A stretch of 39,863 nt of DNA, from positions 1-39,863 of IMG/VR virus record IMGVR_UViG_3300044825_000274. One strand, given 5' to 3'. Shown here one piece after another: positions 3,227 to 37,810 of this stretch. This DNA comes from a virus. A model generated the notes under the pieces. The model saw only the letters and a program-made list of their open reading frames with translations. It was not told the origin of the DNA and ran no database searches. Positions within the stretch are counted from its first letter, which is position 1, and every line of letters starts with the position of its first letter. A program made the translations under genes and the position numbers.

Positions 3227-3420
3227 AATGGTTGATGGAGGGCGGCGAGCGCCATGAGGCGTTCACCTACCCTGATGAACAGTGGGTGTATTACATAATG
3301 GCAGAGAAGTTTGGCTGGACCCCGGACCAAGTAGATCATCTGCCTGCCTCCACTGCTGATTGGCTGTTGGCTATCTCTAGCATGGCTGAAGAAGTCAGAG
3401 CGAAAAGATCTGAAGCATGA
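3199..3420 (+). CDS. Tail assembly chaperone, frameshift extension (gpT-like)
   Basis: Read in the -1 frame after the slippery heptamer, this segment adds 73 residues to the first 109 residues of the short chaperone, giving a fusion of about 182 residues analogous to lambda gpGT. An internal ATG at 3232 opens a stand-alone 62-residue frame, but no convincing ribosome binding site precedes it. The GWTPDQVDHLPASTADWLLA motif is typical of the T domain in actinophages. Its stop overlaps the next start (ATGA). Confidence 0.85.
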   Translation, partial: SAFRELQRLKWLMEGGERHEAFTYPDEQWVYYIMAEKFGWTPDQVDHLPASTADWLLAISSMAEEVRAKRSEA

Positions 3421-3821
3421 CCGCAAGAATCGCCATTACCAATTTAGCCGATGTTCTTTCTGGCCTAGATGCCACAGAGGATAAAATTGAATTGGCTGTT
3501 CAATACGCTATTGCAGTAACCGGTTTGGCAGTAGAACGACAGGCTAAAACAAATGCCTCTGGGCGGCCCGGTCCTAATGTTCAAACCGGTAATCTGCGCA
3601 GAAGTATTACAACATCCAAAGTGCAAAAAGGTTTTGGAACTACTTACACAGTGGATGTTTCTGCCACCATGGTTTATGCCAGAGCAGTTGAATTAGGACA
3701 CCCAAGATGGAAACCGGGCGTAAAATATCCGTACTTAGGACCAGCGGCTTCTAATTTAGAATCCAATGGAACTTTGGCAAGGGTGTTCACTACTAATTTC
3801 GCATCTAGGTTGAGGGGTTGA
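3417..3821 (+). CDS. HK97 gp10-like tail/neck protein
   Basis: A 134-residue protein with features of the HK97 gp10-like family: TGNLRRSI near the middle, VYARAVELGHPRW, and YPYLGPAASNL towards the end. Members act in head closure or tail completion. Here the gene lies between the chaperones and the tape measure rather than beside the connector, which is less common. Start ATG overlaps the preceding stop as ATGA, and the stop lies one base before the tape measure ATG. Confidence 0.65.
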   Translation: MTARIAITNLADVLSGLDATEDKIELAVQYAIAVTGLAVERQAKTNASGRPGPNVQTGNLRRSITTSKVQKGFGTTYTVDVSATMVYARAVELGHPRWKPGVKYPYLGPAASNLESNGTLARVFTTNFASRLRG

Positions 3822-8990: not shown

Positions 8991-9323
8991 ATGCCAACAG
9001 CATACAAAGTCCTAGGGCAAGCGGCCCCGGCAAATACATCAGAAGCAACTCTTTACACAGTGCCTTCAGCCACTCAAGCGGTTGTTTCCACACTTGTAAT
9101 TTCAAATCTAACTAGCACTGCCGCTAATGCAACAGTGAATATCTGCGTTAATGGCGCGGCATCTTCCAATGCAAATACAATTCTCAAAACAGTTTCTATC
9201 GCGGCTTCTTCAACTGCTACATTCACACTTGGTATTACCATGGGTGCGGCTGATTTAATTCGTATTACATCAGGAACATCTAACGCTCTTGCGTTTAGTG
9301 CCTTCGGGAGCGAAATCTCCTAA
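8991..9323 (+). CDS. Small beta-rich tail-associated protein
   Basis: A 110-residue protein starting MPTAYKVLGQAAPA. An upstream in-frame ATG at 8928 lies within the previous gene, so 8991, preceded by GGGAG, is preferred. The sequence is a single beta domain rich in Ala/Thr/Ser (YTVPSATQAVVSTLVISNLT, TATFTLGITMGAADLI), similar in style to small fibre-tip or decoration proteins. It sits between the fibre-like protein and the glycine-rich array and probably belongs to the same tail-tip assembly. Its precise role is unknown. Confidence 0.6.
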   Translation: MPTAYKVLGQAAPANTSEATLYTVPSATQAVVSTLVISNLTSTAANATVNICVNGAASSNANTILKTVSIAASSTATFTLGITMGAADLIRITSGTSNALAFSAFGSEIS

Positions 9324-9324
9324 T

Positions 9325-10203
9325 ATGGGCCTTGATATATTTCCAACTACTTCGCCCGCAGGAAATGTTTTTCCCCCAAGTTCTTCTGCGGCGATTGGTA
9401 CTGGCGCGCCTTACGGATTAACGCTTCAGCAAACTCTTACTAGCAGTGGAGCAGTAACAATCCCTGCTGGTATAAATTGGATTTGGGCTGTTGTTGTTGG
9501 TGGCGGTGGCGGTGCTGGAACTTTGGGCGGCGGTGGTGGTGGCGGAGAAGTCATTATGGGTTGGGTTCGTGCGGCATCTTCAGTAACTATTGGATCCGGT
9601 GGTGCAGGAGCAAACACCTCAAGTTCTTCCGGTGGTTATGGCGGTACATCTATTTATGGCAGTCTAATTGCCGGTGGTGGAAATGGTGGCAACAGATTGT
9701 CACCACAATCACCGGGTGGTGGTGGTGGCGGCGGTAGGCAAGGTTCAGGCGGCGCAGGTTCAACATCATTTTATGGAGTTCCCGGAGGTTCAGGTGGAAC
9801 TTCTGAAGCATCAGGCTCAATTTCTGTTAATGGTGGAGGTGCTGGCGGCACAACACAAACATTTGCTAAGGCCGCAACAGGTGGCTTTGGTGTAGCGGGT
9901 GGCGGTGGCGGAGCAGGAATTAACGGAGCCGGTGGTGATGGAGGAAATGGTTTAACAGGCGGAGGCGCTGGTGCCGGAAGTAGCACAGGAAATGTTGGCG
10001 GATCAGGTTTCGGTGGTGCTGGCGGCAATAACGCTTCTGCATCAGGCGGAAACGGTGGCGGTGGATATTTAGGTGCCGGTAGTAATGGCGGTGGTTATTC
10101 CGGTGGCTCAGGCGGAAATGGCGGCGGTGGTGGCGGCGGTGCTTCTACTGATCCATACATGGGCGGCTCAGGTGGAAATGGTTGCGTTTTATTATGGTAT
10201 TAG
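9325..10203 (+). CDS. Glycine-rich tail adhesin paralogue 1
   Basis: A 292-residue protein, first of four tandem paralogues. It has a short N-terminal arm, then the shared segment PYGLTLQQTLTSSGAVTIPAG and a strand ending VVVGGGGG. Runs of Gly with Asn, Ser and Ala follow, ending GGNGCVLLWY. Long GGX tracts suggest polyglycine-II helices packed as a brush or sandwich, as in gp38-type adhesins of T-even phages (structural inference). The middle is the variable part and probably faces the host. An in-frame upstream ATG at 9289 overlaps the previous gene; 9325 follows its stop by one base and is preferred. Confidence 0.8.
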   Translation: MGLDIFPTTSPAGNVFPPSSSAAIGTGAPYGLTLQQTLTSSGAVTIPAGINWIWAVVVGGGGGAGTLGGGGGGGEVIMGWVRAASSVTIGSGGAGANTSSSSGGYGGTSIYGSLIAGGGNGGNRLSPQSPGGGGGGGRQGSGGAGSTSFYGVPGGSGGTSEASGSISVNGGGAGGTTQTFAKAATGGFGVAGGGGGAGINGAGGDGGNGLTGGGAGAGSSTGNVGGSGFGGAGGNNASASGGNGGGGYLGAGSNGGGYSGGSGGNGGGGGGGASTDPYMGGSGGNGCVLLWY

Positions 10204-10211
10204 GAGCATAA

Positions 10212-11171
10212 ATGGTTACAGGTATTTTTCCTCCTGCTAGTGGAGGCATTGGCACAAACGCACCATACGGTTTGACCCTACAACAAACTTTAACTTCATC
10301 AGGATCAGTAACGATTCCTGCAAGTATTAAACAAGTTTATGCAATCGTTGTTGGCGGCGGTGGCGGTGGAGGCCGAGGTAATTCACCCGGAGGTGCTGGT
10401 GGTGGTGGCGGAGGTTTAACTGAAGGTTGGACACTGCCTGCAACAACAGTAACAATCGGTAGTGGTGGCGCGGCAGGAACTAGCGGCGCGGCAGGTCAAG
10501 CAGGTGGATTAAGTATTTTTGGATCTTTAGTTGCCGGTGGCGGCGGTGGTGGATCTAATGGTTCTCTTTACAATGGTTCCGCTGGTTCATTAGGTGGCGG
10601 TGGCGGTGGTCACAGTCCGGGAAATGCTGGATTCAGTGCTGGCGCAAGTTTTTTTGGCGCTCCTGCAAGTTCTTATGGTGCTGATAGCGGAACCGTACTT
10701 TCTGGCATGGGTGTAGGTGGCAGAGGTGGCGGTAACACAGGTGGATTAACAGGCTCACAAGGTTCACCCGGTCTATCTGCTGGTGGAGGACAGGGCGGAA
10801 GTCAAGGAACAACAGGAAATGTTGGTAACAGCGGTGGTGCTGGCGGCAATGGAACTATTGGTGGCGGTGGAGCAGGTGGCGGTAATGGTAATGCGCAAGA
10901 TTCCGGTGGTGGTGGCGGTGGCGGTAGAGGTTTATTAGGAAACGGTAGCGCGGCATCAACTCCCGTTGGCGGCACAGGACAAGGCACACCCGGTGCAGGT
11001 GGAACCGTTGCTGGTGGTGGTGGTGGCACAGGTGGTGGAAGTACGGCTACTGGTAATTCAACTGGATCTATTGGTGGTGCTGGTGGTTCTGGCGGCGGTG
11101 GCGGCGGTGGTGGCGGTGGTGGTGCCAATGGTGGCGCTGGCGGTACCGGTTGCGTATTGATTTATTACTAA
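10212..11171 (+). CDS. Glycine-rich tail adhesin paralogue 2
   Basis: A 319-residue paralogue with the shared PYGLTLQQTLTSSGSVTIPA block, a strand YAIVVGGGGGGG, a conserved WTLPATTVTIGSGG segment, SIFGSLVAGGGGGG, and the C-terminal GGTGCVLIYY. It is the longest of the four, with the most extensive Gly tracts. The start is set by TAGGAGCATAAATGG, the same stop-ribosome-site-start junction as before the 8194 gene. The Pro-rich frames on the opposite strand are mirror images of the GGN codons and not genes. Confidence 0.8.
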   Translation: MVTGIFPPASGGIGTNAPYGLTLQQTLTSSGSVTIPASIKQVYAIVVGGGGGGGRGNSPGGAGGGGGGLTEGWTLPATTVTIGSGGAAGTSGAAGQAGGLSIFGSLVAGGGGGGSNGSLYNGSAGSLGGGGGGHSPGNAGFSAGASFFGAPASSYGADSGTVLSGMGVGGRGGGNTGGLTGSQGSPGLSAGGGQGGSQGTTGNVGNSGGAGGNGTIGGGGAGGGNGNAQDSGGGGGGGRGLLGNGSAASTPVGGTGQGTPGAGGTVAGGGGGTGGGSTATGNSTGSIGGAGGSGGGGGGGGGGGANGGAGGTGCVLIYY

Positions 11172-11180
11172 GGAGAACTA

Positions 11181-12035
11181 ATGGCTACGAATATATTTCC
11201 TGTTGGTGGTGGCACTGTAAGCACTACGGGTACGCCTTTTGGTTTAACTTTGCAACAAACAATCACTTCTACTGGCAATGTCACGATTCCAGCAGGCATT
11301 AATTTTGTTTATGCGATTGTTGTTGGTGGTGGCGGTTATGGTGCTTATGGTGGCGGCGGTGGTGGCGGTGTCACTATGGGTTGGACCCGCGCTGATAGTT
11401 ATGCGCTAATTGGTGCAGGTGGTACGGGTAGTTCCAATGTTGGCGGTATGTCACGCTTTGGTTCTTTAGTAGCAGGAGGTGGAGGCAGTTCCTCTACTAC
11501 TGCGGCATATAACACGGGTTATGTTGGCGGCGGTGGTGGCGGTTCTGCTCAAAATGCGAACGCAACTAACGGTGGACCCGGAGGAGCAAGTTATTGGGGT
11601 CCAGCAGTAGGCGGTGCGGCTGGTGCTACAAGTAATGGATCTGATGGATTTGATGGCACAGGCGGCGGTGGAGGTTCAGGAAGAACTGGTGCTAATGGCG
11701 GCAGTGGTGGAAATAGTTATGGCGGCGGTGGCGGAGGCGGCGGTTGGGCGCAAGGTTATCCGGGTGGCAACGGCGGCAGAGGTTTAACTGGTGGCGGTGC
11801 TGGTTCTAGCACTTCTCAGGGTGGTAATGGTGGCGCTAGTGCTAATTTTTCTGGCGGTAGTGGTGCAGGTGGAACAAATGTTGGCGGCGGTGGAGGCGCA
11901 GGTTGGTTAGCCGCTGGTGGTAATGCTTCAGGCGCAACTGCTGGCGCTGGTGGTTCTGGTGGTGGTGGTGGCGGTGGTGGCGGTAACGGCGCAGGTGGAA
12001 ATGGCGGCGGCGGTTGTGTATTACTTTATTACTAA
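11181..12035 (+). CDS. Glycine-rich tail adhesin paralogue 3
   Basis: A 284-residue paralogue: PFGLTLQQTITSTGNVTIPAG, then YAIVVGGGGYGAYGGG, the MGWTRADSYALIGAGG segment, SRFGSLVAGGGGS, and C-terminal GGGGCVLLYY. It contains more aromatic and Asn residues in the glycine tracts (NSYGGGGG, GWAQGYPGG) than its neighbours. AAGGAG lies just before the ATG. Conserved ends with a divergent middle fit diversification of a receptor-binding surface. Confidence 0.8.
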   Translation: MATNIFPVGGGTVSTTGTPFGLTLQQTITSTGNVTIPAGINFVYAIVVGGGGYGAYGGGGGGGVTMGWTRADSYALIGAGGTGSSNVGGMSRFGSLVAGGGGSSSTTAAYNTGYVGGGGGGSAQNANATNGGPGGASYWGPAVGGAAGATSNGSDGFDGTGGGGGSGRTGANGGSGGNSYGGGGGGGGWAQGYPGGNGGRGLTGGGAGSSTSQGGNGGASANFSGGSGAGGTNVGGGGGAGWLAAGGNASGATAGAGGSGGGGGGGGGNGAGGNGGGGCVLLYY

Positions 12036-12044
12036 GGAGATCTG

Positions 12045-12968
12045 ATGGCTACTAAACTTTTTCCAGCACCTCAAGCGCAACCTGCTTCAACTGCAACTCC
12101 TTATGGTTTGACCCTGCAACAAACTTTGACTTCATCTGGAACGGTGACAATCCCTGCCGGTATTAACTGGGTTTATGCGGTTGTTGTTGGCGGAGGTGGC
12201 GGAGGTGGCGGTACCGTAACTGGTTCAGGTAATTACGGCGGTGGTGGTGGCGGTGGTGGCGCTGTCACTATGGGATGGTCACCTGCTATAACAAGAGTAA
12301 CTGTTGGATCCGGTGGTAGCGGAGGTTCCACAAGCGGAAGCGCTGGCAGTAATGGCGGCGCATCTATTTATGGCTTTATTGTTGCTGGCGGCGGTGGCGG
12401 CGGTGGCGGTGCAGGTGGTACTGCAACTGGATCAGCAGGAACAGTTGGAAGCGGCGGTGGCGGCGCGGGTTCACCAAACGCTGTTAATAGTGGCGGTAAC
12501 GGTGGATTTAGTTTTTATGGTTTTGCAGGTGGAACTTCCGCAAGCACTGGTGGAAGTGGTAGTACGCCAACAACAGGTAGTTATGCTGTTGGTGCGGCTG
12601 GTGGTGGCGCAAACTATCCCGGTGGATCTGGTACATCTGGTGGAGGGGCTGGCGCAACAGGTTCTATACGCGGTGGAGATGGATTAGTTGGTGGCGGTAA
12701 TGGTGGCGGTAGTTTGAACGGCACTACTGCCCGTGGTGGTAATGGTATTTTTGCTGGCGGAACTGCTCTTGGAAACTATGCTGGCGGTGGCGGTGGTGGT
12801 GGATACTTAGGTGTTGGTGCTAACAGCACACAATACAATGGTGGCAATGGTGGGAATGGCGGCGGCGGTGGTGGCGGCGCTAGTAATACCAATGCAAGCG
12901 GAACTACTGCTGTTTCCAGTGGAACCGGTGGAAACGGCGGCACTGGTTGTGTTTTACTTTATTACTAA
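12045..12968 (+). CDS. Glycine-rich tail adhesin paralogue 4
   Basis: A 307-residue paralogue closing the array: PYGLTLQQTLTSSGTVTIPAG, YAVVVGGGGGGGG, MGWSPAITRVTVGSGGSGG, SIYGFIVAGGGGGG and C-terminal GGTGCVLLYY. All four copies keep one Cys four residues from the C-terminus followed by a hydrophobic-aromatic tail, which could anchor the subunit to the fibre or drive oligomerisation. The ribosome binding site is AAGGAGATCTG before the ATG. Confidence 0.8.
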   Translation: MATKLFPAPQAQPASTATPYGLTLQQTLTSSGTVTIPAGINWVYAVVVGGGGGGGGTVTGSGNYGGGGGGGGAVTMGWSPAITRVTVGSGGSGGSTSGSAGSNGGASIYGFIVAGGGGGGGGAGGTATGSAGTVGSGGGGAGSPNAVNSGGNGGFSFYGFAGGTSASTGGSGSTPTTGSYAVGAAGGGANYPGGSGTSGGGAGATGSIRGGDGLVGGGNGGGSLNGTTARGGNGIFAGGTALGNYAGGGGGGGYLGVGANSTQYNGGNGGNGGGGGGGASNTNASGTTAVSSGTGGNGGTGCVLLYY

Positions 12969-19524: not shown

Positions 19525-20189
19525 TTGACCTACAAAATATGATTGTTAAATCTTTGCGTGGCTATGACTCAAGCAGGGGCCGATCAACTCAAGTTGAGGT
19601 GGGGCCATCTTCTCTTGGTGGTTGCAAGCGCCGGGTTTGGCATGACTTAAAACAGACCCAAAAACTAAATGAAACAGAGAACCTGAGTGCAATCTTGGGA
19701 ACTTTTATTCACTCTGGTATGGAAAAAGCCATGCACCGCTTAGATCCATTTGGAGAGAACTTTCTTATTGAGGTTGAACTCAATCATGATGAAATCAAAG
19801 GCCACTGTGATCTATTCATTAAAGATCTAGGAATGGTTGTTGATTTCAAAACTAAGACCAAAAGCAATATGCGCTACTTAGGTAAAGGGCAGGAGCAATG
19901 GCAGATCCAAACTTACGGATGGCTATTGGAGCAAGCAGGTTATGAGGTGAAAAAAGTTGCACTGGTTGGCATCCCCCGTGATGGAAAGATGGATGACATT
20001 GTTGTATGGCAAGATGACTACAAACCTGAAGTAGCGCTTGAGGCTTTGGCTTGGTTGCGCAATCTGAAGGAATGGGCGGCATCTGACAAAGAAGCACCAG
20101 CACCAGAACTTAACCTATCTTTTTGCAAAAACTACTGCCCTTATTTTGATCCTAGTGGGGTGATTGGATGCCCCAGTACGATGAAGTAG
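19521..20189 (+). CDS. Cas4-like PD-(D/E)XK exonuclease with Fe-S cluster motif
   Basis: A 222-residue RecB/Cas4-family nuclease. Motif I His is H64 (TFIHSGMEKA), metal ligands are D97 (GHCDLF) and D108-x-K110 (VVDFKT), followed by motif QxxxY (QIQTYGWLL, about 128-132). Cysteines C35, C202, C206 and C217 fit the 4Fe-4S ligand set of Cas4-type enzymes. It probably resects DNA ends to give ssDNA for the annealing protein at 18036. There is no CRISPR array here, so a host-defence role is not implied. GTG start coupled to the previous stop. Confidence 0.85.
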   Translation: MIDLQNMIVKSLRGYDSSRGRSTQVEVGPSSLGGCKRRVWHDLKQTQKLNETENLSAILGTFIHSGMEKAMHRLDPFGENFLIEVELNHDEIKGHCDLFIKDLGMVVDFKTKTKSNMRYLGKGQEQWQIQTYGWLLEQAGYEVKKVALVGIPRDGKMDDIVVWQDDYKPEVALEALAWLRNLKEWAASDKEAPAPELNLSFCKNYCPYFDPSGVIGCPSTMK

Positions 20190-20509
20190 ATTGGGAAAAA
20201 GCCGCGTGTAGGGATTCGGTTTATACGGATATTTTTTATTCCGTAGAAGAAGAACGAAGCGTGACCGCCTATCTATACATAAATGCACTGCGGCAAATCT
20301 GTTTAGCCTGCCCTATCTGGAAAGAATGTCTTTCCTACGCCATGGAAAATGAAATCTATGGCGTATGGGGCGGCATGACCAGTATTGAACGATTCTCCTT
20401 TAAGAATCCAAAACGCTATCCCAACCAACAACGGCGAGCGCTATTCGCTTTTGAGGAGGCGGGTATTAGTTACTTAGAGATCATGGAGTGCGTTGATGGA
20501 ACCGATTAG
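20168..20509 (+). CDS. whiB: WhiB-family Fe-S transcription factor
   Basis: A 113-residue WhiB-like protein. The four cluster ligands are C14 (AACRD), C45 and C48 (CxxC), and C54 (spacing CX2CX5C), followed by the signature GVWGG at 65-69. The C-terminal basic part (FKNPKRYPNQQRR) would contact DNA. WhiB proteins are known only from actinobacteria and their phages, where some phage versions repress host whiB genes or septation. The region after residue 85 extends beyond the minimal domain with ISYLEIMECV. It overlaps the exonuclease gene by 22 bases. Confidence 0.92.
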   Translation: MPQYDEVDWEKAACRDSVYTDIFYSVEEERSVTAYLYINALRQICLACPIWKECLSYAMENEIYGVWGGMTSIERFSFKNPKRYPNQQRRALFAFEEAGISYLEIMECVDGTD

Positions 20510-31599: not shown

Positions 31600-33474
31600 A
31601 TGGGTCTGCGTGACCGTATCGCAAGAGCAATAGCAACAGGCGATGTAGAAAAAGCACCGCGCCTGCCTGCTGGATCTGTCACACAGACAGAAGCAGAGAT
31701 GCGCTCACAAGCCGATGCACTCAATATGCGTCAGACCTACGGCAACTCCGTAGCCTTACCACGCGCACCTTTCAGCGCACAGGTTCCTTTTGGTCCGGGA
31801 TTGCCGATTACTCCGGGTGCAATCAACCCGTTGCAGGACAATGGCAGACCACAACCACGCCGCTATGAATATCAAGTAGCGCAAAACATCAATGTAACTG
31901 AAACACGCCTTGTACCCTTCAAGACCTTACGCGCCGCCGCTGATCAGATTGACATTCTGCGCCGGTGCATTGAAGTAACCAAGAGCAAGATGATTGGCCT
32001 TGAGTGGGATATTGTTTTAGGGCAAGACGCATCAGAAAAGATCAGTGCTGAGTCCGGTGGAGATCATGTGCGGGCTATGGCTCGCGCCCGTGAGCAATAC
32101 ACAGACGAAATCAACCGCCTCCGTGAATTCTGGGAAACCCCAGATAAGCAGAACGGTTTAACTTGGAGCGATTGGCTCAACATTGCTCTTGAGGACATCC
32201 TTGTAATTGATGCTTGGGCGGTTTATCCGCTTCCAACTGTCGGTGGGGATCTCTACGCAATGCAGATTCTTGATGGATCCACAATTAAGCCGCTTATTGA
32301 TGATCGCGGTATGCGCCCAATGCCCCCAAATGCGGCGTTCCAACAGATTCTTTACGGTTTTCCACGCTCAGAGTTTTCTGCAACTGACGAAGATCCAAAG
32401 GCAGATGGAGAGTTCACCAGTGATCAACTTGCTTACATGGTTAGGAATCGCCGCACCATTAGCGTTTATGGCTTTAGTCCTACTGAGCGAGCGCTACCTC
32501 TTGCCGACATCTATCTACGCCGCCAGCAATGGCTCAGAGCCGAATACACAGACGGCGTGTTGCCAGAACTCATGTTCACAACCGATGAAGATTGGGGAAA
32601 CAACCCAGATCTGTTGCGAGCCTACGAAAACATCCTCAATGACGATCTTGCAGGACAAACAGAACAACGCAAGCGCGCAAGACTGTTGCCAAAGGGCCTC
32701 AGCCCAGTAGTCAATGAGGGTTATGGCGAGAAGTTCAAAGACACTCTTGATGATTATTTGATTACCTCCATTTGCGGTCACTACGGAGTGCAACCAAGTG
32801 AAATTGGCTTTGCTCCAAAGGGCGGATTGGGCGGAAAAGGCTTTGAAGAAGAACGCGCAATAACCGCGGAAGCAATCGGAGTTGGCCCATTGGCTAACTG
32901 GATTGGCAAGATGGTTACAAACCTTTCTTACACCTATTTAGGTATGCCACGGGAACTTGAATTCAAACTTATGACTAGCAAGCGCATGGATAATGAATCC
33001 TCAGCGCGGAAGGCTGATATTGAAGTAAAGAGCGCGGGTAAAACCATCAATGAGCGTAGATCTGAAATGGGTCTGCCGCTTCTTGATACCCCACAAGCAG
33101 ATATGCCAATGCTTGTTGCAGGATCAGACATCTTTTTGTTCTCCCCAGAAGGCATCATTAACGCTAAGGAAGTTATCTCAGCCCCAACCCTTGAGGGTCC
33201 TGATGCAACTCCATCAGCACCCGTAACTCCTGACACTCAGAACGCACAGCCTGAAGAAATCAACCCAGAGGAAGCATCTGAGGTTGAAGAAGAAGTAGAT
33301 GAAGAAACCCGCACAGAGGTCAAAGCCTTTATGAAGTGGGTATCTAAGGGCAGACGCGCTCGCCCGTTTGAATTCAAAACATTAGATCCGATTGTGGGTG
33401 AAGCGCTCAACCGTTGCGCATTTGACGGGGATATAGACACCGCAAGAGCGCTCGCAAAAGCGTATCTCACATGA
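31600..33474 (+). CDS. Portal protein
   Basis: A 624-residue portal subunit. The recognisable part starts near residue 90: NINVTETRLVPFKTLRAAAD, then QIDILRRCIEVTKSKMIGLEW, followed by SDWLNIALEDILVIDAWAVY and the clip/stem region near GGLGGKGFEEERAI. The extended C-terminal tail (about 515-624) is acidic and ends ALAKAYLT. It forms the DNA channel at the capsid vertex and docks terminase and the connector. The ribosome site AAGGGAG lies just upstream; ATGA overlap with the MuF-type gene. Confidence 0.88.
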   Translation: MGLRDRIARAIATGDVEKAPRLPAGSVTQTEAEMRSQADALNMRQTYGNSVALPRAPFSAQVPFGPGLPITPGAINPLQDNGRPQPRRYEYQVAQNINVTETRLVPFKTLRAAADQIDILRRCIEVTKSKMIGLEWDIVLGQDASEKISAESGGDHVRAMARAREQYTDEINRLREFWETPDKQNGLTWSDWLNIALEDILVIDAWAVYPLPTVGGDLYAMQILDGSTIKPLIDDRGMRPMPPNAAFQQILYGFPRSEFSATDEDPKADGEFTSDQLAYMVRNRRTISVYGFSPTERALPLADIYLRRQQWLRAEYTDGVLPELMFTTDEDWGNNPDLLRAYENILNDDLAGQTEQRKRARLLPKGLSPVVNEGYGEKFKDTLDDYLITSICGHYGVQPSEIGFAPKGGLGGKGFEEERAITAEAIGVGPLANWIGKMVTNLSYTYLGMPRELEFKLMTSKRMDNESSARKADIEVKSAGKTINERRSEMGLPLLDTPQADMPMLVAGSDIFLFSPEGIINAKEVISAPTLEGPDATPSAPVTPDTQNAQPEEINPEEASEVEEEVDEETRTEVKAFMKWVSKGRRARPFEFKTLDPIVGEALNRCAFDGDIDTARALAKAYLT

Positions 33475-35483
33475 CTTGGGAGCGCGCATTGGAAGCGGAT
33501 GCGCGTTTAGCGGCAAAAAACGCGGTACTTATTAGAGCCGCTTTACGCCAATCCTTTGATCCTGAACGCGCCTTTATTGGGTATCAAAGCACTACGCCAG
33601 ATAACTCTTTGACTCTTGCACAACAAAGAGTCCGGGCAAGATCTTGGGCAATTATGAATATCCGCCCCAATTTGGAGCCTTTGCGTCAGGTTTTATACAA
33701 ACTTTGGTCTGAGGGTTATGCCTTGGGAGATCTTGCGGCGCGAATGGCTATTTCTGAAGCCGAACGCGCACAAAAAGCGGATACATCAACCACTGTGGAC
33801 TGGAATAAATGGAAACCCGGTGATGCGGCATCTGCCATTTTATTAAAACCACCTAAAGCATTTCAACGGTTGTTAGAGGGTGCGGGGATTACCCTCAAAG
33901 GCTTCTCTGATACAACTTTGACTGATATTGGTAACGCTATTGGTGAAGCGATTGAATTAGGTTTAGATGCAAAAGTTTCTGCCAAAAACATTCTCAATCA
34001 TGTTGCTAATCCGGCTCGCGCTTTAAGTATTGCAATCACTGAACAAAACCGCGCTATATCTACGGCTACGGCTAACAGATACTTAGACGCAGGACTATCA
34101 CAAATGGAATGGTTAGTGTTCCAACCTTGCAAAATTTGTGCTGAAAATGAAGGCAAAAAAGTTTCTATTGGTGCGCCTTTTCCATCAGGACACACACAAC
34201 CACCAGCCCACCCTCATTGCCGATGTGCTTTGGCCCCGGTCATTCCGGGAATGGATGACCCAAGCAACACAGCCGGATTGGTGACGCAACCTCTTACTGA
34301 TCCTGAAGGAAATGTTACGCAAGAGCCTCCCGGAAACTATCGTGGTTTCCACCGCGCCCCCACACGCGCCGATGAATTTGGAGCGCCTGCAACCAATGTG
34401 GAAGAAATGATGCCTGATTTTTATGCAAGGCCAAATATCTATACAACTGGTATGCCACAGGCAGATAAAGAATCTTTGGATGTATTACGGAGAATTAAAG
34501 ATAAGCCGGAAGAATTAGTTACTATTTATCGCGCTGTACCCACAGGGGTAAATCAAATCAATCCCGGCGATTGGGTAACACTTTCACCTTCATACGCGGA
34601 AACTCACCTAGCAGGCAATGTGCAAGGGGGTGGGCGTGTAATCAGTATGCAAATTCGGGCAAAAGATTTGTGGTTTGACGGTGACAGCATCAATGAGTTT
34701 GGTTATGACCCAGTAGATAGATCAATGTCCGTTGGTATGATCAGTATAGATCCAAAAATTATGCCTAAAAATCCCGGCCTTGATCTGTGGAACAGAAATG
34801 AATTGATGGAAGTTGCCGCAATTAAAGATCCACACTGGGAACCAAGAAAAATCTGGGATGGAGCCTCTCAGCAATACATAGAAGTTGTGCGCCCTCCCGG
34901 AGATCCAAGGTTGAAAAAATTACTTGAATTACAAGGCTTCAGCGCTACGCCAAAAATAGTAGATGCGCCAACCATGGATGAATTGGGCAAAAAGGGCGAA
35001 AAGATGTATCGTGGTTTAGCGCCAACAGAAAAATTAACCGTTAAAGACATGATTGAACAGTTCAAAAACGGAGATTTGTATGTAGGCACTGGGGTTATAG
35101 GTAATGGCGTATATGCAAGTAATCAATTTGATTATGTTCTGAAATACGCAGAAAACAAGGCGGATAATGTTATGAACATGGTTTTCTTGCCTGATGCCAA
35201 ATTTGTAGATGCCAAAGTAGCCAAAGATGAAGCAAAAGAAATGATGAACGCCTTTTTCCATAAAGCATTTGACCGCAAGGAAGAACTTGCAAAATCTAAA
35301 TATGCCGCTTTTGTGGAATCTTTTGGCAATCTCACTCAACAAGAAGCCAAAGATTTAGGTTGGTTCTTCCGTGATGCCGGATCATGGGCGGCGGCAAATG
35401 GTTATGACGCTATTCAATACGCGGAAGATGGCGAAAAGGTATTTGTAATCTTAAATAGAGGGGCGGTAGCAATACAAAAATGA
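33471..35483 (+). CDS. MuF head-morphogenesis protein fused to two ADP-ribosyltransferase-like regions
   Basis: A 670-residue multidomain protein. Residues 1-260 are MuF-like: helical N-terminus, AITEQNRAISTATANRY, and the zinc-type signature CKICAENEGK ... HPHCRCALAP. Region two (about 345-430) reads IYRAVP with R354, GDWVTLSPSYAETH with S372 and S374, and DSINEFGYDP with E409, a possible Arg-Ser-Glu arrangement. Region three (about 505-670) has MYRGL with R514, GNGVYASN at 544-551, a helical stretch and NGYDAIQYAE ... ILNRGAVAI. MuF fusions with toxins or effectors are known (including ART domains); here two ART-like regions appear in tandem. Such a protein would be packaged in the head and could be ejected with DNA. 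Activity is inferred. Confidence 0.7.
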   Translation: MTWERALEADARLAAKNAVLIRAALRQSFDPERAFIGYQSTTPDNSLTLAQQRVRARSWAIMNIRPNLEPLRQVLYKLWSEGYALGDLAARMAISEAERAQKADTSTTVDWNKWKPGDAASAILLKPPKAFQRLLEGAGITLKGFSDTTLTDIGNAIGEAIELGLDAKVSAKNILNHVANPARALSIAITEQNRAISTATANRYLDAGLSQMEWLVFQPCKICAENEGKKVSIGAPFPSGHTQPPAHPHCRCALAPVIPGMDDPSNTAGLVTQPLTDPEGNVTQEPPGNYRGFHRAPTRADEFGAPATNVEEMMPDFYARPNIYTTGMPQADKESLDVLRRIKDKPEELVTIYRAVPTGVNQINPGDWVTLSPSYAETHLAGNVQGGGRVISMQIRAKDLWFDGDSINEFGYDPVDRSMSVGMISIDPKIMPKNPGLDLWNRNELMEVAAIKDPHWEPRKIWDGASQQYIEVVRPPGDPRLKKLLELQGFSATPKIVDAPTMDELGKKGEKMYRGLAPTEKLTVKDMIEQFKNGDLYVGTGVIGNGVYASNQFDYVLKYAENKADNVMNMVFLPDAKFVDAKVAKDEAKEMMNAFFHKAFDRKEELAKSKYAAFVESFGNLTQQEAKDLGWFFRDAGSWAAANGYDAIQYAEDGEKVFVILNRGAVAIQK

Positions 35484-35731
35484 TTAGAGATCATGTAATT
35501 AGTGTCAAATGGGCCACGGCTGTAAATGACTTTAACATTCAAAGCCCTGAAGATATGGATACCTTACAAGAGTTCAGGTCTTGGTATCTAAAAGCCAAAA
35601 GCATCAAAGAGGTACCTCAACCTTTCAGATCATGGGTCTTGAACGGGTTGCCAGCCCGATACAGCCGACAAGAACAAATCCAAAAAGGTACAGTTACACC
35701 TAAGTTTTCCATTGAGGAAATAGAGGACTAA
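35480..35731 (+). CDS. Small protein following the MuF-ART fusion (possible partner)
   Basis: An 83-residue protein: MIRDHVISVKWATAVNDFNI, then helices with MDTLQEFRSWYLKAKSIKE and SWVLNGLPARYSRQEQI. ATGA overlap with the MuF-ART gene gives close translational coupling. The stop directly abuts the next ATG. Coupled small genes after toxin-bearing proteins are often immunity or chaperone factors, and this one could protect the producing cell; that is inference from position alone. Confidence 0.55.
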   Translation: MIRDHVISVKWATAVNDFNIQSPEDMDTLQEFRSWYLKAKSIKEVPQPFRSWVLNGLPARYSRQEQIQKGTVTPKFSIEEIED

Positions 35732-37810
35732 ATGGCTGATGGATTTGTGCCACCCCAAGCGGTTCGCAATAACGCCAAACGCGGTTTGGAATTACGCGAA
35801 AAGCATGGCAGAGGTGGTACGGCAGTTGGAGTGGCTCGCGCCCGCGATCTTTCTAACGGCAAATCCATTTCACTATCCACAATCAAGCGGATGGTTTCCT
35901 ACTTTGCTCGCCATGAAGTAGATAAAAAAGGCGAAGGTTGGGGCGTAGATTCAGCAGGTTACATTGCATGGCTTCTCTGGGGCGGAGATGCTGGCAAATC
36001 TTGGGCTAATAGAATTGCAAAAGAAAATGACAAAAAGGATAAAGCAACCATGACCAATATGACCACAGCCTTCTTTGACATCATCAAAGCGGATAAAAAT
36101 GCAGATGGAACCATGCTGGTGTACGGCAAGGCCACAGATGATTCATTAGACATTGATCAGCAAATCTGTGATCCGGTGTGGCTAGATAACGCCATGCCTG
36201 AATGGTTCAAGAGTGGTGGCAACATCCGTGAACAACACAGCAACATTGCCGCTGGTGTTGCTAAAGAGTATGAGAAGAAGGCGGATGGACATTACATCCA
36301 CGCCCTAGTTGTAGATCCTGTAAGCGTTAAGAAAGTTGATACAGGGGTACTCAAGGGCTTCAGCATTGGGATTAAGAATCCACGCGTTGTAAGGGATCAG
36401 AAGGCCGCTAACGGGCGCATCATTGATGGCAAGATTGTAGAAGTCAGCCTTGTGGACCGCCCTGCTAATCCCAACTGCCAGTTGGTCCTTGCTAAGTCCG
36501 TAGAGGGCGAAACCGGATGGTGGAAGGTTGAAGAATTAGTAGAGAAGGCCGATAAGAAGCCAGATTACGAAAACATCAACGCAGGTGGCGGGGGCGCTGT
36601 ACCGGCTGACAAAGAGTTATACAACCGGGTAAAGCGAGAGGCCAAAGAGAAGTTTGATGTGTACCCATCCGCTGTGGCTAATGCTTGGGTGGTCCGGGAG
36701 TATAAGAAGCGCGGCGGAACTTACAAAAAGAAATCCGAAAAAAGTGCTAATAGTTTAGAATTATCAGAAATGACCGAAAGGGAAGCCATGACCATGCTCG
36801 CCAAAGATGTTATTGAACTATCCAAGGCGTACGCTGGCGGCGATCTCCTCAAGTTTGATAAGAAAACCTACGATTCTGCGCGTCAGGCGTTGGCACAACT
36901 TATCGCTATTGAAGCAGAAGAAATGGGTGAAGGTCATAATGAAGAAGCCTCACTCTCTCACCTACTAGCCGCAGTTCATCACCTCTTTGCTTGGTACGCA
37001 GGTGAAGAAGCAGAAGGAGAAGTTATGCAAGAAAATCTCATTGAAGAAAAAGCCGCCCATGAAAAGGAAATGAAGCCTAAGAAGGGTGAGAAGCGCGTTG
37101 ATTACATGAAGCGTTGCAAAGAAGCAGGAATGAAAGATGATGTGGTAAAGACAATGTGTGATAAATACTTTGCCGCAGATGCAGATGAAGATAAGCCTGT
37201 TGAAGCAGAAAAGTCTGCTGAAATTTCAAAGTGTTTAGAGTGCGGATGCAATCAAGTTGGTTCTGATCATGGTCTAACTCAGACTAATGACTATGCCAAT
37301 GTTGCAAAACCATCCCATGTAACAACGGCGGAAATGTATTCGCCAGATCAAACTCCTAAATCTGCTGAAGCAGATGCCCCAGAGGAGAAGGCTGATGAAG
37401 CCGCTCCTGCTGATGTAGAGGCACCTGCTGAGGAAGATGTTAAGGAAGAAGTAAAAGAAGATTCTGCTGATGAGCCTAAGTCAGCAGATTTAGAAGCCCT
37501 CGTAGAGCAAGCAATCAAGAGCGCAACTGAGTCCATCAAATCGGAAATTGCAGAACTACTAGCCGCAAAAGAGGCGGCAGTGTCAAAGGCAACCCGTTTG
37601 GAAACTGAGTTGGCTGAGGCTAAATCTCTCGCAGTGGCAGGTGGCCCAAAGCGCACAGCGCGCCCAGTTAGTGAAACCAGCAATGATCTCCTAACAAAAG
37701 CCGCCGCATACAACGCGAAAGCACAGGCAACAACCGACCCAACACTTGCAAAGGGCTACTCAGCATTAGCAAAGGAATTCCTTGCTAAAGCACAGTCCGA
37801 CAGCAAGTAA
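35732..37810 (+). CDS. Multidomain prohead protease/scaffold polyprotein
   Basis: A 692-residue protein. Residues 1-95 form a phage domain of unknown role (VPPQAVRNNAKRGLELREKH, LLWGGDAGKSWANRI). A serine protease of the HK97/U35 prohead class follows at about 110-265: catalytic His H169 (GNIREQHSNIAAG), Ser S211 (LKGFSIGIKNP), and VEVSLVDRPANPNCQL. Residues 283-337 resemble DUF5872 (KEKFDVYPSAVANAWVVREY). A helical region, a Cys-containing knot (KCLECGC, about 498-504), an acidic linker (about 536-585) and a coiled coil that would serve as scaffold follow. It cuts itself and the capsid delta segment during maturation. The fusion of four or five modules is unusual. Confidence 0.8.
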   Translation: MADGFVPPQAVRNNAKRGLELREKHGRGGTAVGVARARDLSNGKSISLSTIKRMVSYFARHEVDKKGEGWGVDSAGYIAWLLWGGDAGKSWANRIAKENDKKDKATMTNMTTAFFDIIKADKNADGTMLVYGKATDDSLDIDQQICDPVWLDNAMPEWFKSGGNIREQHSNIAAGVAKEYEKKADGHYIHALVVDPVSVKKVDTGVLKGFSIGIKNPRVVRDQKAANGRIIDGKIVEVSLVDRPANPNCQLVLAKSVEGETGWWKVEELVEKADKKPDYENINAGGGGAVPADKELYNRVKREAKEKFDVYPSAVANAWVVREYKKRGGTYKKKSEKSANSLELSEMTEREAMTMLAKDVIELSKAYAGGDLLKFDKKTYDSARQALAQLIAIEAEEMGEGHNEEASLSHLLAAVHHLFAWYAGEEAEGEVMQENLIEEKAAHEKEMKPKKGEKRVDYMKRCKEAGMKDDVVKTMCDKYFAADADEDKPVEAEKSAEISKCLECGCNQVGSDHGLTQTNDYANVAKPSHVTTAEMYSPDQTPKSAEADAPEEKADEAAPADVEAPAEEDVKEEVKEDSADEPKSADLEALVEQAIKSATESIKSEIAELLAAKEAAVSKATRLETELAEAKSLAVAGGPKRTARPVSETSNDLLTKAAAYNAKAQATTDPTLAKGYSALAKEFLAKAQSDSK

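What the first reader, a model, noticed from the sequence alone, without database searches (positions are those of the whole stretch)
33471..35483. MuF head protein carrying two tandem ADP-ribosyltransferase-like regions
The sequence shows a complete MuF zinc-type core (CKIC ... HPHCRC) followed by two separate stretches with ART-like elements: YRAVP/WVTLSPSYA/INEFGY around R354, S372/S374, E409, and MYRGL/GNGVYAS/GYDAIQYA around R514 and 544-551. MuF proteins with one C-terminal toxin are known. A virion-carried protein with two ART-like regions in an actinophage would be a double effector delivered with the genome, comparable in logic to T4 Alt.
Basis: partly seen in the sequence, partly recalled or inferred. 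Interest (0 to 1): 0.82.

Follow-up and report, generated by a model that had tools for sequence, protein, structure and literature searches.

The report
Phage head protein with two effectors
A bacterial virus appears to build two different enzyme-like domains of the ADP-ribosyltransferase fold into one head protein, the second of them a swappable toxin-like cassette that travels with its own small partner gene, which probably protects the infected cell until the virus is finished.

Summary
ORF 33471-35483 (670 aa) is a MuF protein directly after the portal gene, with two C-terminal domains. Domain 2 (residues ~478-670) is predicted as an ART fold: pLDDT 93; best PDB hit the ADP-ribosylating anti-CRISPR AcrIF11, Foldseek E 9e-4; 49 of 50 second-look rows are ART proteins. 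Domain 1 (288-418) is very probably a minimal ART-like fold (pLDDT 89.5; 43 of 50 rows ART proteins, but low Z); R354 and E409 are invariant in 50 of 50 rows. It is widespread, without a Pfam match and filed in PHROGs as 'ParB C-terminal domain'. Domain 2 behaves as a polymorphic-toxin cassette: linker, domain 2 and the overlapping small ORF 35480-35731 are missing from the nearest siblings and shared with more distant phages. Partner profiles hit only behind a domain 2 (91 of 91), as did a partner-only scan (12 of 12). MuF-ART fusions are published, also in lytic actinophages. New, as far as searched: two unlike ARTs in series, the domain-1 reassignment, the partners. Activity, packaging and immunity are untested.

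The parts
33471..35483 (+). MuF head protein with two C-terminal ART-type domains (670 aa)
33471..34295 (+). MuF part, residues 1-275 (Pfam PF04233 match 152-254, CKIC...HPHCRC)
34332..34724 (+). Domain 1, residues 288-418: minimal ART-like fold (predicted); invariant Y290 H294 R354 D367 W368 A376 A397 E409
34719..34880 (+). Linker residues 417-470; part of it resembles the linker before domain 2 in L119, L120 and L197 (32-44% over 31-34 aa)
34881..35480 (+). Domain 2, residues 471-670: PARP/diphtheria-type ART fold (predicted); R514, Y548, Y559, candidate third residue E655
35480..35731 (+). Small ORF (83 aa, overlaps the stop of the MuF gene as ATGA): candidate immunity/partner protein in residues 1-60; residues ~64-83 are a tail shared with L142's small ORF (BLAST) and, by eye, with the MuF-d1 C terminus of L002
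34716..35680 (+). Exchange island: DNA similarity to siblings L002, L053 and L054 stops at 34712-34715 and resumes at 35687-35689; against L142 it stops earlier (34261) and resumes at 35681
31600..33474 (+). Portal protein, directly upstream (PHROG 2662 E 6e-55; Pfam portal below its cut-off)
35732..37810 (+). Next gene downstream; PHROG function unknown (labelled 'protease' in my scripts by position only)

Best explanation
The gene encodes a MuF-type polymorphic effector of an actinophage. The MuF part would place a few copies at the portal inside the head (inferred from known MuF proteins). On DNA ejection the C-terminal domains would enter the new host. Domain 1 is a minimal ART-like enzyme that probably modifies one host target or nucleotide which the phage itself can tolerate. 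Domain 2 is a second, PARP/diphtheria-type ART, more harmful, moved between phages as a cassette with the overlapping small ORF. That ORF's 60-residue protein (or, in other phages, the N-terminal domain of the next gene) most likely binds domain 2 and blocks it during late expression, so that the infected cell is not poisoned before lysis. Shown here: architecture, conservation, predicted folds, cassette exchange, linkage of the partner. Inferred: packaging, injection, catalysis, target, immunity.
For: MuF domain and position after the portal gene. Domain 2 fold: AF2 pLDDT 93, pTM 0.87; Foldseek PDB best 6kyf (AcrIF11 per PMC12421852), E 9e-4, prob 0.99, then MbcT and PARPs; second look led by a cyanophage A4 pre-ejectosome protein Z 7.1 (155 aligned, rmsd 7.2) and diphtheria toxin Z 7.0 (121 aligned, rmsd 3.7); a family profile against PDB sequences gives 33 hits up to E 10, 31 of them ARTs (6 at E 0.04-0.85, 25 near-identical tankyrase/PARP rows at E 2-3). 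Domain 1 fold: pLDDT 89.5, pTM 0.83; 43 of 50 second-look rows are ART proteins by my reading of the titles; R354, D367, W368, E409 in 50 of 50. If the last aligned residues are ungapped, E409 falls on the third catalytic position of PARP10, PARP14 and PARP16 and on or beside that of ExoS, and R514 and E655 on the first and third of diphtheria toxin (ranges; catalytic numbers recalled). Cassette: nearest siblings L002/L053 (portal 91%, next gene 78-79%) have no hit to linker, domain 2 or partner, while more distant L119/L120/L197 (MuF 50-53%) have domain 2 at 44-48% and partner at 65-73%; sharp DNA edges. Partner linkage: 59 of 59 and 32 of 32 profile hits among 19,374 ORFs of 203 loci lie at a domain-2 end (24 and 23 distinct sequences; 103 of 203 loci have no domain 2); 12 of 12 confirmed loci of a partner-only scan, 9 on new contigs; 7 of 7 non-redundant MuF genes without a recognised domain 2 lack it.
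Against: No activity, toxicity, packaging or neutralisation is shown. Fold scores are modest: Z below 8 for both domains, Foldseek TM-scores at most 0.45, domain 1 best Foldseek E 0.07. For domain 1 the end ranges of Vis and ExoT do not put E409 on their (recalled) catalytic glutamates. The third catalytic position of domain 2 is not conserved (E in 5 of 45, D in 9, A in 8), and PARP1 ranges would put it two residues off, at V657. Against the nearest siblings domain 1 is less conserved (51-70%) than the MuF part (73-78%), the reverse of the distant comparisons. In some relatives the partner is fused to the next effector gene, odd for an immunity protein unless that product is cut. Sequence comparison of domain 1 with domain 2 is only marginal (hhalign probability 11; profile E 0.01). 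The partner types are not shown to be one family (hhalign probability 11). The partner profiles were built from neighbours of domain 2, so those members match by construction.
Confidence: 0.62

Rival explanations
1. The small ORF is not an immunity protein but a folding or loading chaperone (adaptor) that keeps domain 2 soluble or guides it into the head.
For: Strict adjacency fits any obligate partner. In L013, L161 and others it is the N-terminal domain of the next gene, which suits an adaptor.
Against: It is absent where the MuF protein carries no recognised domain 2 (7 of 7), including MuF-zincin and MuF-domain-1 proteins that would also need loading; small ORFs behind two studied MuF toxins are immunity proteins (Bxa/Bsi, Apk2/IapK).
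Confidence: 0.25
2. Domain 2 is an anti-defence ART (AcrIF11-like) that disarms a host immune protein, not a toxin.
For: Best Foldseek hit is AcrIF11; no integrase or resolvase match in 8 of 8 contigs, so a toxin used by lysogens against competitors is not obviously useful.
Against: A dedicated partner is hard to explain for a specific anti-defence enzyme. PADLOC and PHROGs give no match, which says little either way.
Confidence: 0.25
3. Domain 1 is not an ART but a small structural or DNA-binding module, as its PHROG name 'ParB C-terminal domain' suggests.
For: PHROG 2579 and several RefSeq and GenBank entries carry ParB names; Z-scores are low.
Against: Stark gp127 is domain 1 alone (129 aa); it, E3 gp206, Cane17 gp114 and the Arthrobacter plasmid protein have no Pfam match at E 0.01, ParB included; R, H, DW and E are invariant; fold neighbours are mostly ARTs.
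Confidence: 0.15
4. Both C-terminal domains are dead remnants kept as head structural extensions.
For: The third catalytic position of domain 2 varies; against the nearest siblings domain 1 varies more than the MuF part.
Against: Against more distant relatives domain 1 is better conserved (66-75%) than the MuF part (50-57%) (L003, L008, L013, L119); R514 and Y548 kept in 44 of 45.
Confidence: 0.08

Closest known systems
Bxa of a Bacteroides stercoris prophage (MuF-ART with immunity proteins Bsi and BAH; PMC11699363, abstract, outline and passages seen)
   Same: MuF protein with C-terminal ART; small adjacent ORFs act as immunity; family with swapped C-termini
   Different: One ART, not two; no domain 1 mentioned; prophage of Bacteroidales; our partner was not compared with Bsi, and a hydrolase gene like BAH was not looked for
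MuF-VIP2 fusions of Microbacterium phages Percival, Goodman, Johann (PMC7302621, passages seen)
   Same: MuF-ART fusion in actinophages; the EJ phages are described as without temperate features
   Different: VIP2-type ART; single ART; no partner described in the passages seen
ARTs of phage polyvalent proteins (Tox-ART-HYD2 clade; PMC5512222, passages seen; I take Pfam ART-PolyVal to be this group)
   Same: ARTs in phage effectors, in one or several copies per protein (12 in one)
   Different: Active site H-Y-D there, R-Y-variable here; the window's domain 2 is not matched by PF18760 although 7 of 45 rows are, weakly
Apk2 MuF toxins with IapK/Aph1 (PMC12226406, passages seen)
   Same: MuF polymorphic toxin plus a specific binding immunity protein encoded behind it
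   Different: Alarmone synthetase, not ART
T4 Alt (passages of PMC5512222 and PMC9503650)
   Same: Phage ART packaged in the head and injected with the DNA
   Different: R-S-E clade; no MuF domain or partner mentioned in the passages seen
AcrIF11 (PDB 6kyf; PMC12421852, passages seen)
   Same: Best structural match of domain 2
   Different: Small stand-alone inhibitor of type I-F CRISPR-Cas that modifies Csy1; no head protein

Membership tests
MuF polymorphic toxins | MuF domain encoded directly after the portal gene | tested here: met
   PF04233 38.6 bits over cut-off 29.6; portal 31600-33474 overlaps the start
MuF polymorphic toxins | C-terminal extension of at least 100 aa carrying a toxin-type domain | tested here: met
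   two ART-type folds by prediction; toxicity itself not tested
MuF polymorphic toxins | C-terminus varies between close relatives | tested here: met
MuF polymorphic toxins | small ORF (<150 aa) directly behind the toxin gene | tested here: met
   35480-35731, 83 aa, ATGA overlap
MuF polymorphic toxins | found in temperate phages (as reported in PMC5576092; a finding rather than a definition) | tested here: inconclusive
   no Phage_integrase and no Resolvase match in 8 of 8 contigs of 31.6-42 kb; contigs may be incomplete
MuF polymorphic toxins | toxicity and neutralisation by the small ORF | not testable with these tools
   needs expression
ART superfamily (domain 2) | ART fold | tested here: met
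   on a predicted model; Z at most 7.1
ART superfamily (domain 2) | H or R in the first strand and Y in the second | tested here: met
   R514 44 of 45, Y548 44 of 45, Y or F at 559 44 of 45
ART superfamily (domain 2) | acidic third residue at the start of the late strand | tested here: inconclusive
   E655 in the window, column not conserved
ART superfamily (domain 1) | ART fold | tested here: inconclusive
   43 of 50 second-look rows ART proteins, but best Z 5.3-5.5 and Foldseek E 0.07
ART superfamily (domain 1) | R in the first strand, S/T in the second, E before the last | tested here: met
   R354 50/50; T370 47/50, S372 36/50; E409 50/50
ART superfamily (both) | NAD binding and transfer | not testable with these tools
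ART-PolyVal (PF18760) | H-Y-D active site | tested here: not met
   first residue is R514; window domain 2 has no PF18760 match
ParB C-terminal domain (PHROG 2579 name) | association with a ParB domain | tested here: not met
   no ParB match in P0001 nor in four members from named records; other PHROG members not examined

The most novel reading that the evidence does not exclude
Domain 1 founds a separate, very widespread phage ART clade (YxxxH...R...GDW...E) so far hidden under a ParB label; the window protein is a two-stage head-delivered effector in which this tolerable ART is combined with exchangeable, immunity-guarded toxic ARTs; and the small partners form a new immunity group that also occurs fused to the front of the next effector gene, in actinophages without integrase, where it shields the phage's own factory cell rather than a lysogen.
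Probability: 0.4. Interest if true: 0.76.

Novelty: new variant of a known kind. Interest (0 to 1): 0.58.

Why it matters
It gives a likely fold and invariant residues to a phage domain found in 171 of 50,697 phage records and in 378 confirmed IMG/VR stretches, including a stand-alone copy in a Mycobacterium smegmatis phage, so the question 'what does it modify?' becomes testable. It also offers a candidate toxin-partner pair with natural exchange controls (sibling phages with and without the cassette) for asking whether phages without an integrase carry guarded toxins in their heads, where PMC5576092 had reported MuF toxins only from temperate phages.

Tried and rejected
Direct sequence routes gave little: Pfam and NCBIfam for either domain (nothing above noise), PDB sequences with the pair of domains (no hit) or with the domain-1 profile (one 72-residue chain, E 0.34), domain 2 against GenBank phages (no match at E 1), PADLOC for both domains, the partner and the whole protein (none). 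Foldseek against viral models with domain 1 found 15 hits at E 0.001 or better, which look like its own family (25-42% identity), and named ARTs only below that, at E 0.4 and worse.

Considered and dropped: (1) that domains 1 and 2 are recent duplicates: hhalign probability 11 and best clean profile E 0.01, reversed sequences none. An earlier iterated domain-2 profile matched domain 1 at E 4e-6, but that profile had taken in a domain-1 stretch of L070 during iteration, so I do not use it. (2) that the small ORF is only the tail of the ancestral MuF gene: only residues ~64-83 are; residues 1-60 follow domain 2. (3) that the short N-terminal domains in the HDQxxHG-linker genes are a general packaging tag: of 62 distinct such genes 16 follow a domain 2 and, read by eye, all 16 begin with it and none of the other 46 does; the profile test is. 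(4) that the tandem is unique: L038/L142 and L053/L054 have MuF-d1-d2 too (L053/L054 by iterated profile only; BLAST with the window's domain 2 finds nothing there), and by iterated profile L160 has d2-d1-d2 and L152 d1-d2 in a gene behind MuF.

Limits of counts: loci overlap (the same contig was often fetched more than once); distinct sequences are given. Loci were chosen for domain 1, domain 2 or partner, not at random. The partner scan used one pattern; 12 of its 45 pattern matches were confirmed; the scan with the other partner type could not be run. Rows of named phages and the plasmid (L020-L024), one L070 stretch overlapping domain 1, one weak domain-2 stretch (L093) and two truncated domain-1 stretches (L028, L089) were left out of the alignments used for structure prediction. 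No partner search was made for domain 1. Papers: PMC5512222, PMC9503650, PMC5576092, PMC12226406, PMC7302621 and PMC12421852 were seen as passages, PMC11699363 as abstract, outline and passages; others only as search listings. No print of two ARTs on one MuF protein was found, a narrow search of an open-access library.
Full report
1. What is there. ORF 33471-35483 (+, 670 aa) begins inside the end of the portal gene and carries a MuF domain (PF04233, residues 152-254, E 2e-9). Residues 288-418 match PHROG 2579 'ParB C-terminal domain' at E 3e-38; residues ~478-670 match nothing in Pfam, PHROGs, NCBIfam or PADLOC beyond noise. The gene is followed, with an ATGA overlap, by an 83-aa ORF (35480-35731), then by two genes of unknown PHROG function. 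WhiB, a transcription factor of actinobacteria and their phages (recalled; of 14 control genomes only Corynebacterium rings), is encoded at 20168-20509 and found in the window and 7 of 7 related contigs, 31.6-42 kb long; in the same 8 no Phage_integrase and no Resolvase domain was found. 'Actinophage' is therefore reasonable; 'without integrase' holds only as far as the contigs are complete.

2. Domain 1. It is a mobile, widespread module: 378 confirmed stretches in IMG/VR with one pattern set, of which 80 were returned, 171 of 50,697 phage records, 150 of them Mycobacterium phages, 3 of 72,556 plasmid records, 21 loci in GTDB genomes. It occurs alone (Stark gp127, 129 aa), next to structural genes (Rhodococcus phage E3 gp206), in very large proteins, and in this MuF clade either fused to MuF or as a separate gene close behind it, while some members show none in the stretch held. 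In a 50-row alignment Y290, H294, R354, D367, W368, A376, A397 and E409 never change and T370 is kept in 47. AF2 gives pLDDT 89.5, pTM 0.83. Foldseek against PDB finds only weak hits, the first three being the Vis ART (E 0.07-0.26). In the second look 43 of 50 listed chains are ART proteins by my reading of the titles (tRNA phosphotransferases, PARPs, Tse6, TreTu/TreX, ParT, Arr, Vis, ExoS/T), the best Z 5.3 with 69 aligned residues at rmsd 2.5; the other 7 are three CNFy rows (one of them the very top, Z 5.5), IcmQ, two Tic22 and lymphostatin. Z of this size alone proves little; the uniform identity of the neighbours and the invariant R and E are what persuade me. Taking the last aligned residues as ungapped, E409 would sit on residue 987 of PARP10, 1782 of PARP14, 254 of PARP16 and 380 or 381 of ExoS, and R354 on 319 of ExoS (ranges); these are, from memory, the third and first catalytic positions. 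The same arithmetic does not fit Vis and misses ExoT by a few residues (recalled numbers). The ParB name has no support in what I tested: no ParB match in P0001 or in four members from named records.

3. Domain 2. A 45-row alignment keeps R514, G515, G544, G546 and Y548 in 44 rows each and Y or F at 559 in 44; R514 and a Y548-Y559 pair eleven apart resemble the H...Y-x10-Y of PARPs and diphtheria-type toxins (recalled). Single members touch Pfam PARP (9 of 45, best E 0.0034) and ART-PolyVal (7 of 45, best E 0.0035), the window's own domain neither; the family profile against PDB sequences gives 33 hits up to E 10: 6 ART toxins at E 0.04-0.85, 25 near-identical tankyrase/PARP rows at E 2-3, and 2 antibody chains. 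AF2: pLDDT 93, pTM 0.87. Foldseek: 6kyf first, E 9e-4, probability 0.99; 6kyf is AcrIF11 (PMC12421852); then MbcT and PARPs. Second look: a cyanophage A4 pre-ejectosome protein Z 7.1, diphtheria toxin Z 7.0 (121 aligned, rmsd 3.7); the 49 rows below the first are ART proteins by my reading of the titles, for one helped by its name. The first-ranked entry is of interest because its title names a phage ejection complex; its paper was not found. End ranges put R514 on residue 21 and E655 on residue 148 of diphtheria toxin, and E655 on 553 of exotoxin A and 581 of cholix (catalytic numbers recalled), but PARP1 ranges would point to V657, and the column is not conserved (E 5, D 9, A 8 of 45). So: ART fold yes, as far as prediction goes; classical chemistry undecided.

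4. A cassette. The window and three sibling types (L002; L142 = L038 = L068; L053/L054) share portal (86-91%), MuF (73-78%) and, where held, the next gene (78-80%), yet differ behind MuF: L002 has MuF-d1 and a short tail; the window MuF-d1-d2 and the small ORF; L142 MuF-d1 with another domain 2 (25%) and another small ORF; L053/L054 a third arrangement. DNA similarity to L002 and L053/L054 stops at 34712-34715 and returns at 35687-35689. Linker, domain 2 and small ORF of the window are instead shared with L119, L120 and L197, which are more distant everywhere else (MuF 50-53%, next gene 47-53%): linker 32-44%, domain 2 44-48%, partner 65-73%. In those, a zincin stands where the window has domain 1, and domain 1 is a separate gene (L119, L120) or not seen (L197). 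The tail TVTPKFS... that ends the MuF protein of L002 ends the small ORF in the window and in L142 and L053, as expected if a unit of linker, domain 2 and partner entered such a gene. In L142 the exchanged stretch also includes domain 1. Domain 1 itself is more alike than MuF in distant pairs (66-75% against 50-57%; L003, L008, L013, L119) but less alike in the sibling pairs (51-70% against 73-78%), so it too seems to be exchanged.

5. The partner. In the loci that hold sequence behind a C-terminal domain 2, a start codon follows within about 25 bases, often as ATGA, and opens a 45-75 residue sequence (its structure was not predicted). It is a separate ORF in the window, L008, L012, L025, L055, L059 and others, and the N-terminal domain of the next gene elsewhere. 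Two profiles, built from such neighbours, searched over 19,374 ORFs of 203 loci hit 59 and 32 times, always at a domain-2 end; these are 24 and 23 distinct sequences, and 103 of the 203 loci have domain 1 but no domain 2. As a test in the other direction, a scan of IMG/VR with the partner alignment alone returned 12 confirmed loci (of 45 pattern matches), 9 on contigs not met before; all 12 have MuF-zincin-domain 2 directly upstream. Of the 24 non-redundant MuF genes, the 7 without a recognised domain 2 (L002, L003, L009, L014, L060, L062, L066) have no such ORF; of the 17 with it, L053 has a small ORF of another kind and L039 has the partner behind a split domain 2. The partner types may or may not be one family. 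This is the pattern that PMC5576092 used to argue for immunity genes behind MuF toxins (89.4% of 191 toxin genes against 25.5% of 952 short ones) and that was then shown by experiment for Bxa and Apk2.

6. How it may work. Inferred: MuF copies sit by the portal, are ejected with the DNA, and the two ARTs act in the new host. Domain 1, without a partner of these kinds, would act on something the phage can afford to modify; domain 2, guarded and variable, would be the more harmful one. The partner would protect the producing cell during late expression. A chaperone role for the partner and an anti-defence role for domain 2 remain open.

7. Known or new. MuF-ART fusions are in print, also in actinophages described as without temperate features (PMC7302621), and several ARTs per phage protein are in print (PMC5512222). 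What I did not find in the searches listed is two unlike ARTs in series on one MuF protein, an ART assignment for the PHROG 2579 domain, or this partner family. I call it a new variant of a known kind.

Noticed in passing
window 9289-12968 (+): Four consecutive ORFs of 284-319 aa are glycine-rich paralogues, each with a P[YF]GLTLQQT motif near the start and a GCVL..Y end, in a stretch of high GC skew; perhaps tail-fibre-like.
   Followed up: partly
L143-L171, e.g. L160 ORF 1654-3597 and L151, L152, L157, L165: Many genes behind MuF start with or are spaced by a KH...HDQ..HG.W linker before each module; another clade uses NPNRDSKGRF-type linkers. They may be cutting or loading signals.
   Followed up: partly
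L160, L152, L157, L161, L163, L165, L166, L170: By iterated profile, arrays of two or three ART-like domains (d2-d1-d2, d1-d2, d2-d2) in one or in neighbouring genes behind MuF: ART batteries.
   Followed up: partly
L008, L012, L014, L025, L119, L197 and relatives: A zincin-like HEWGH motif (in L008 a Pfam ATLF match below its cut-off, E 2.6e-4) takes the place of domain 1 or follows it in the MuF protein.
   Followed up: partly
PHROG 2579 and RefSeq records such as NC_021311, NC_042027: The name 'ParB C-terminal domain' is attached to domain-1 genes of mycobacteriophages, while the near-identical stand-alone Stark gp127 has no ParB match.
   Followed up: partly
L039/L155 around 3300-3620: Domain 2 is split over two frames in this contig, a frameshift or a sequencing error; a partner-type sequence follows it.
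   Followed up: no
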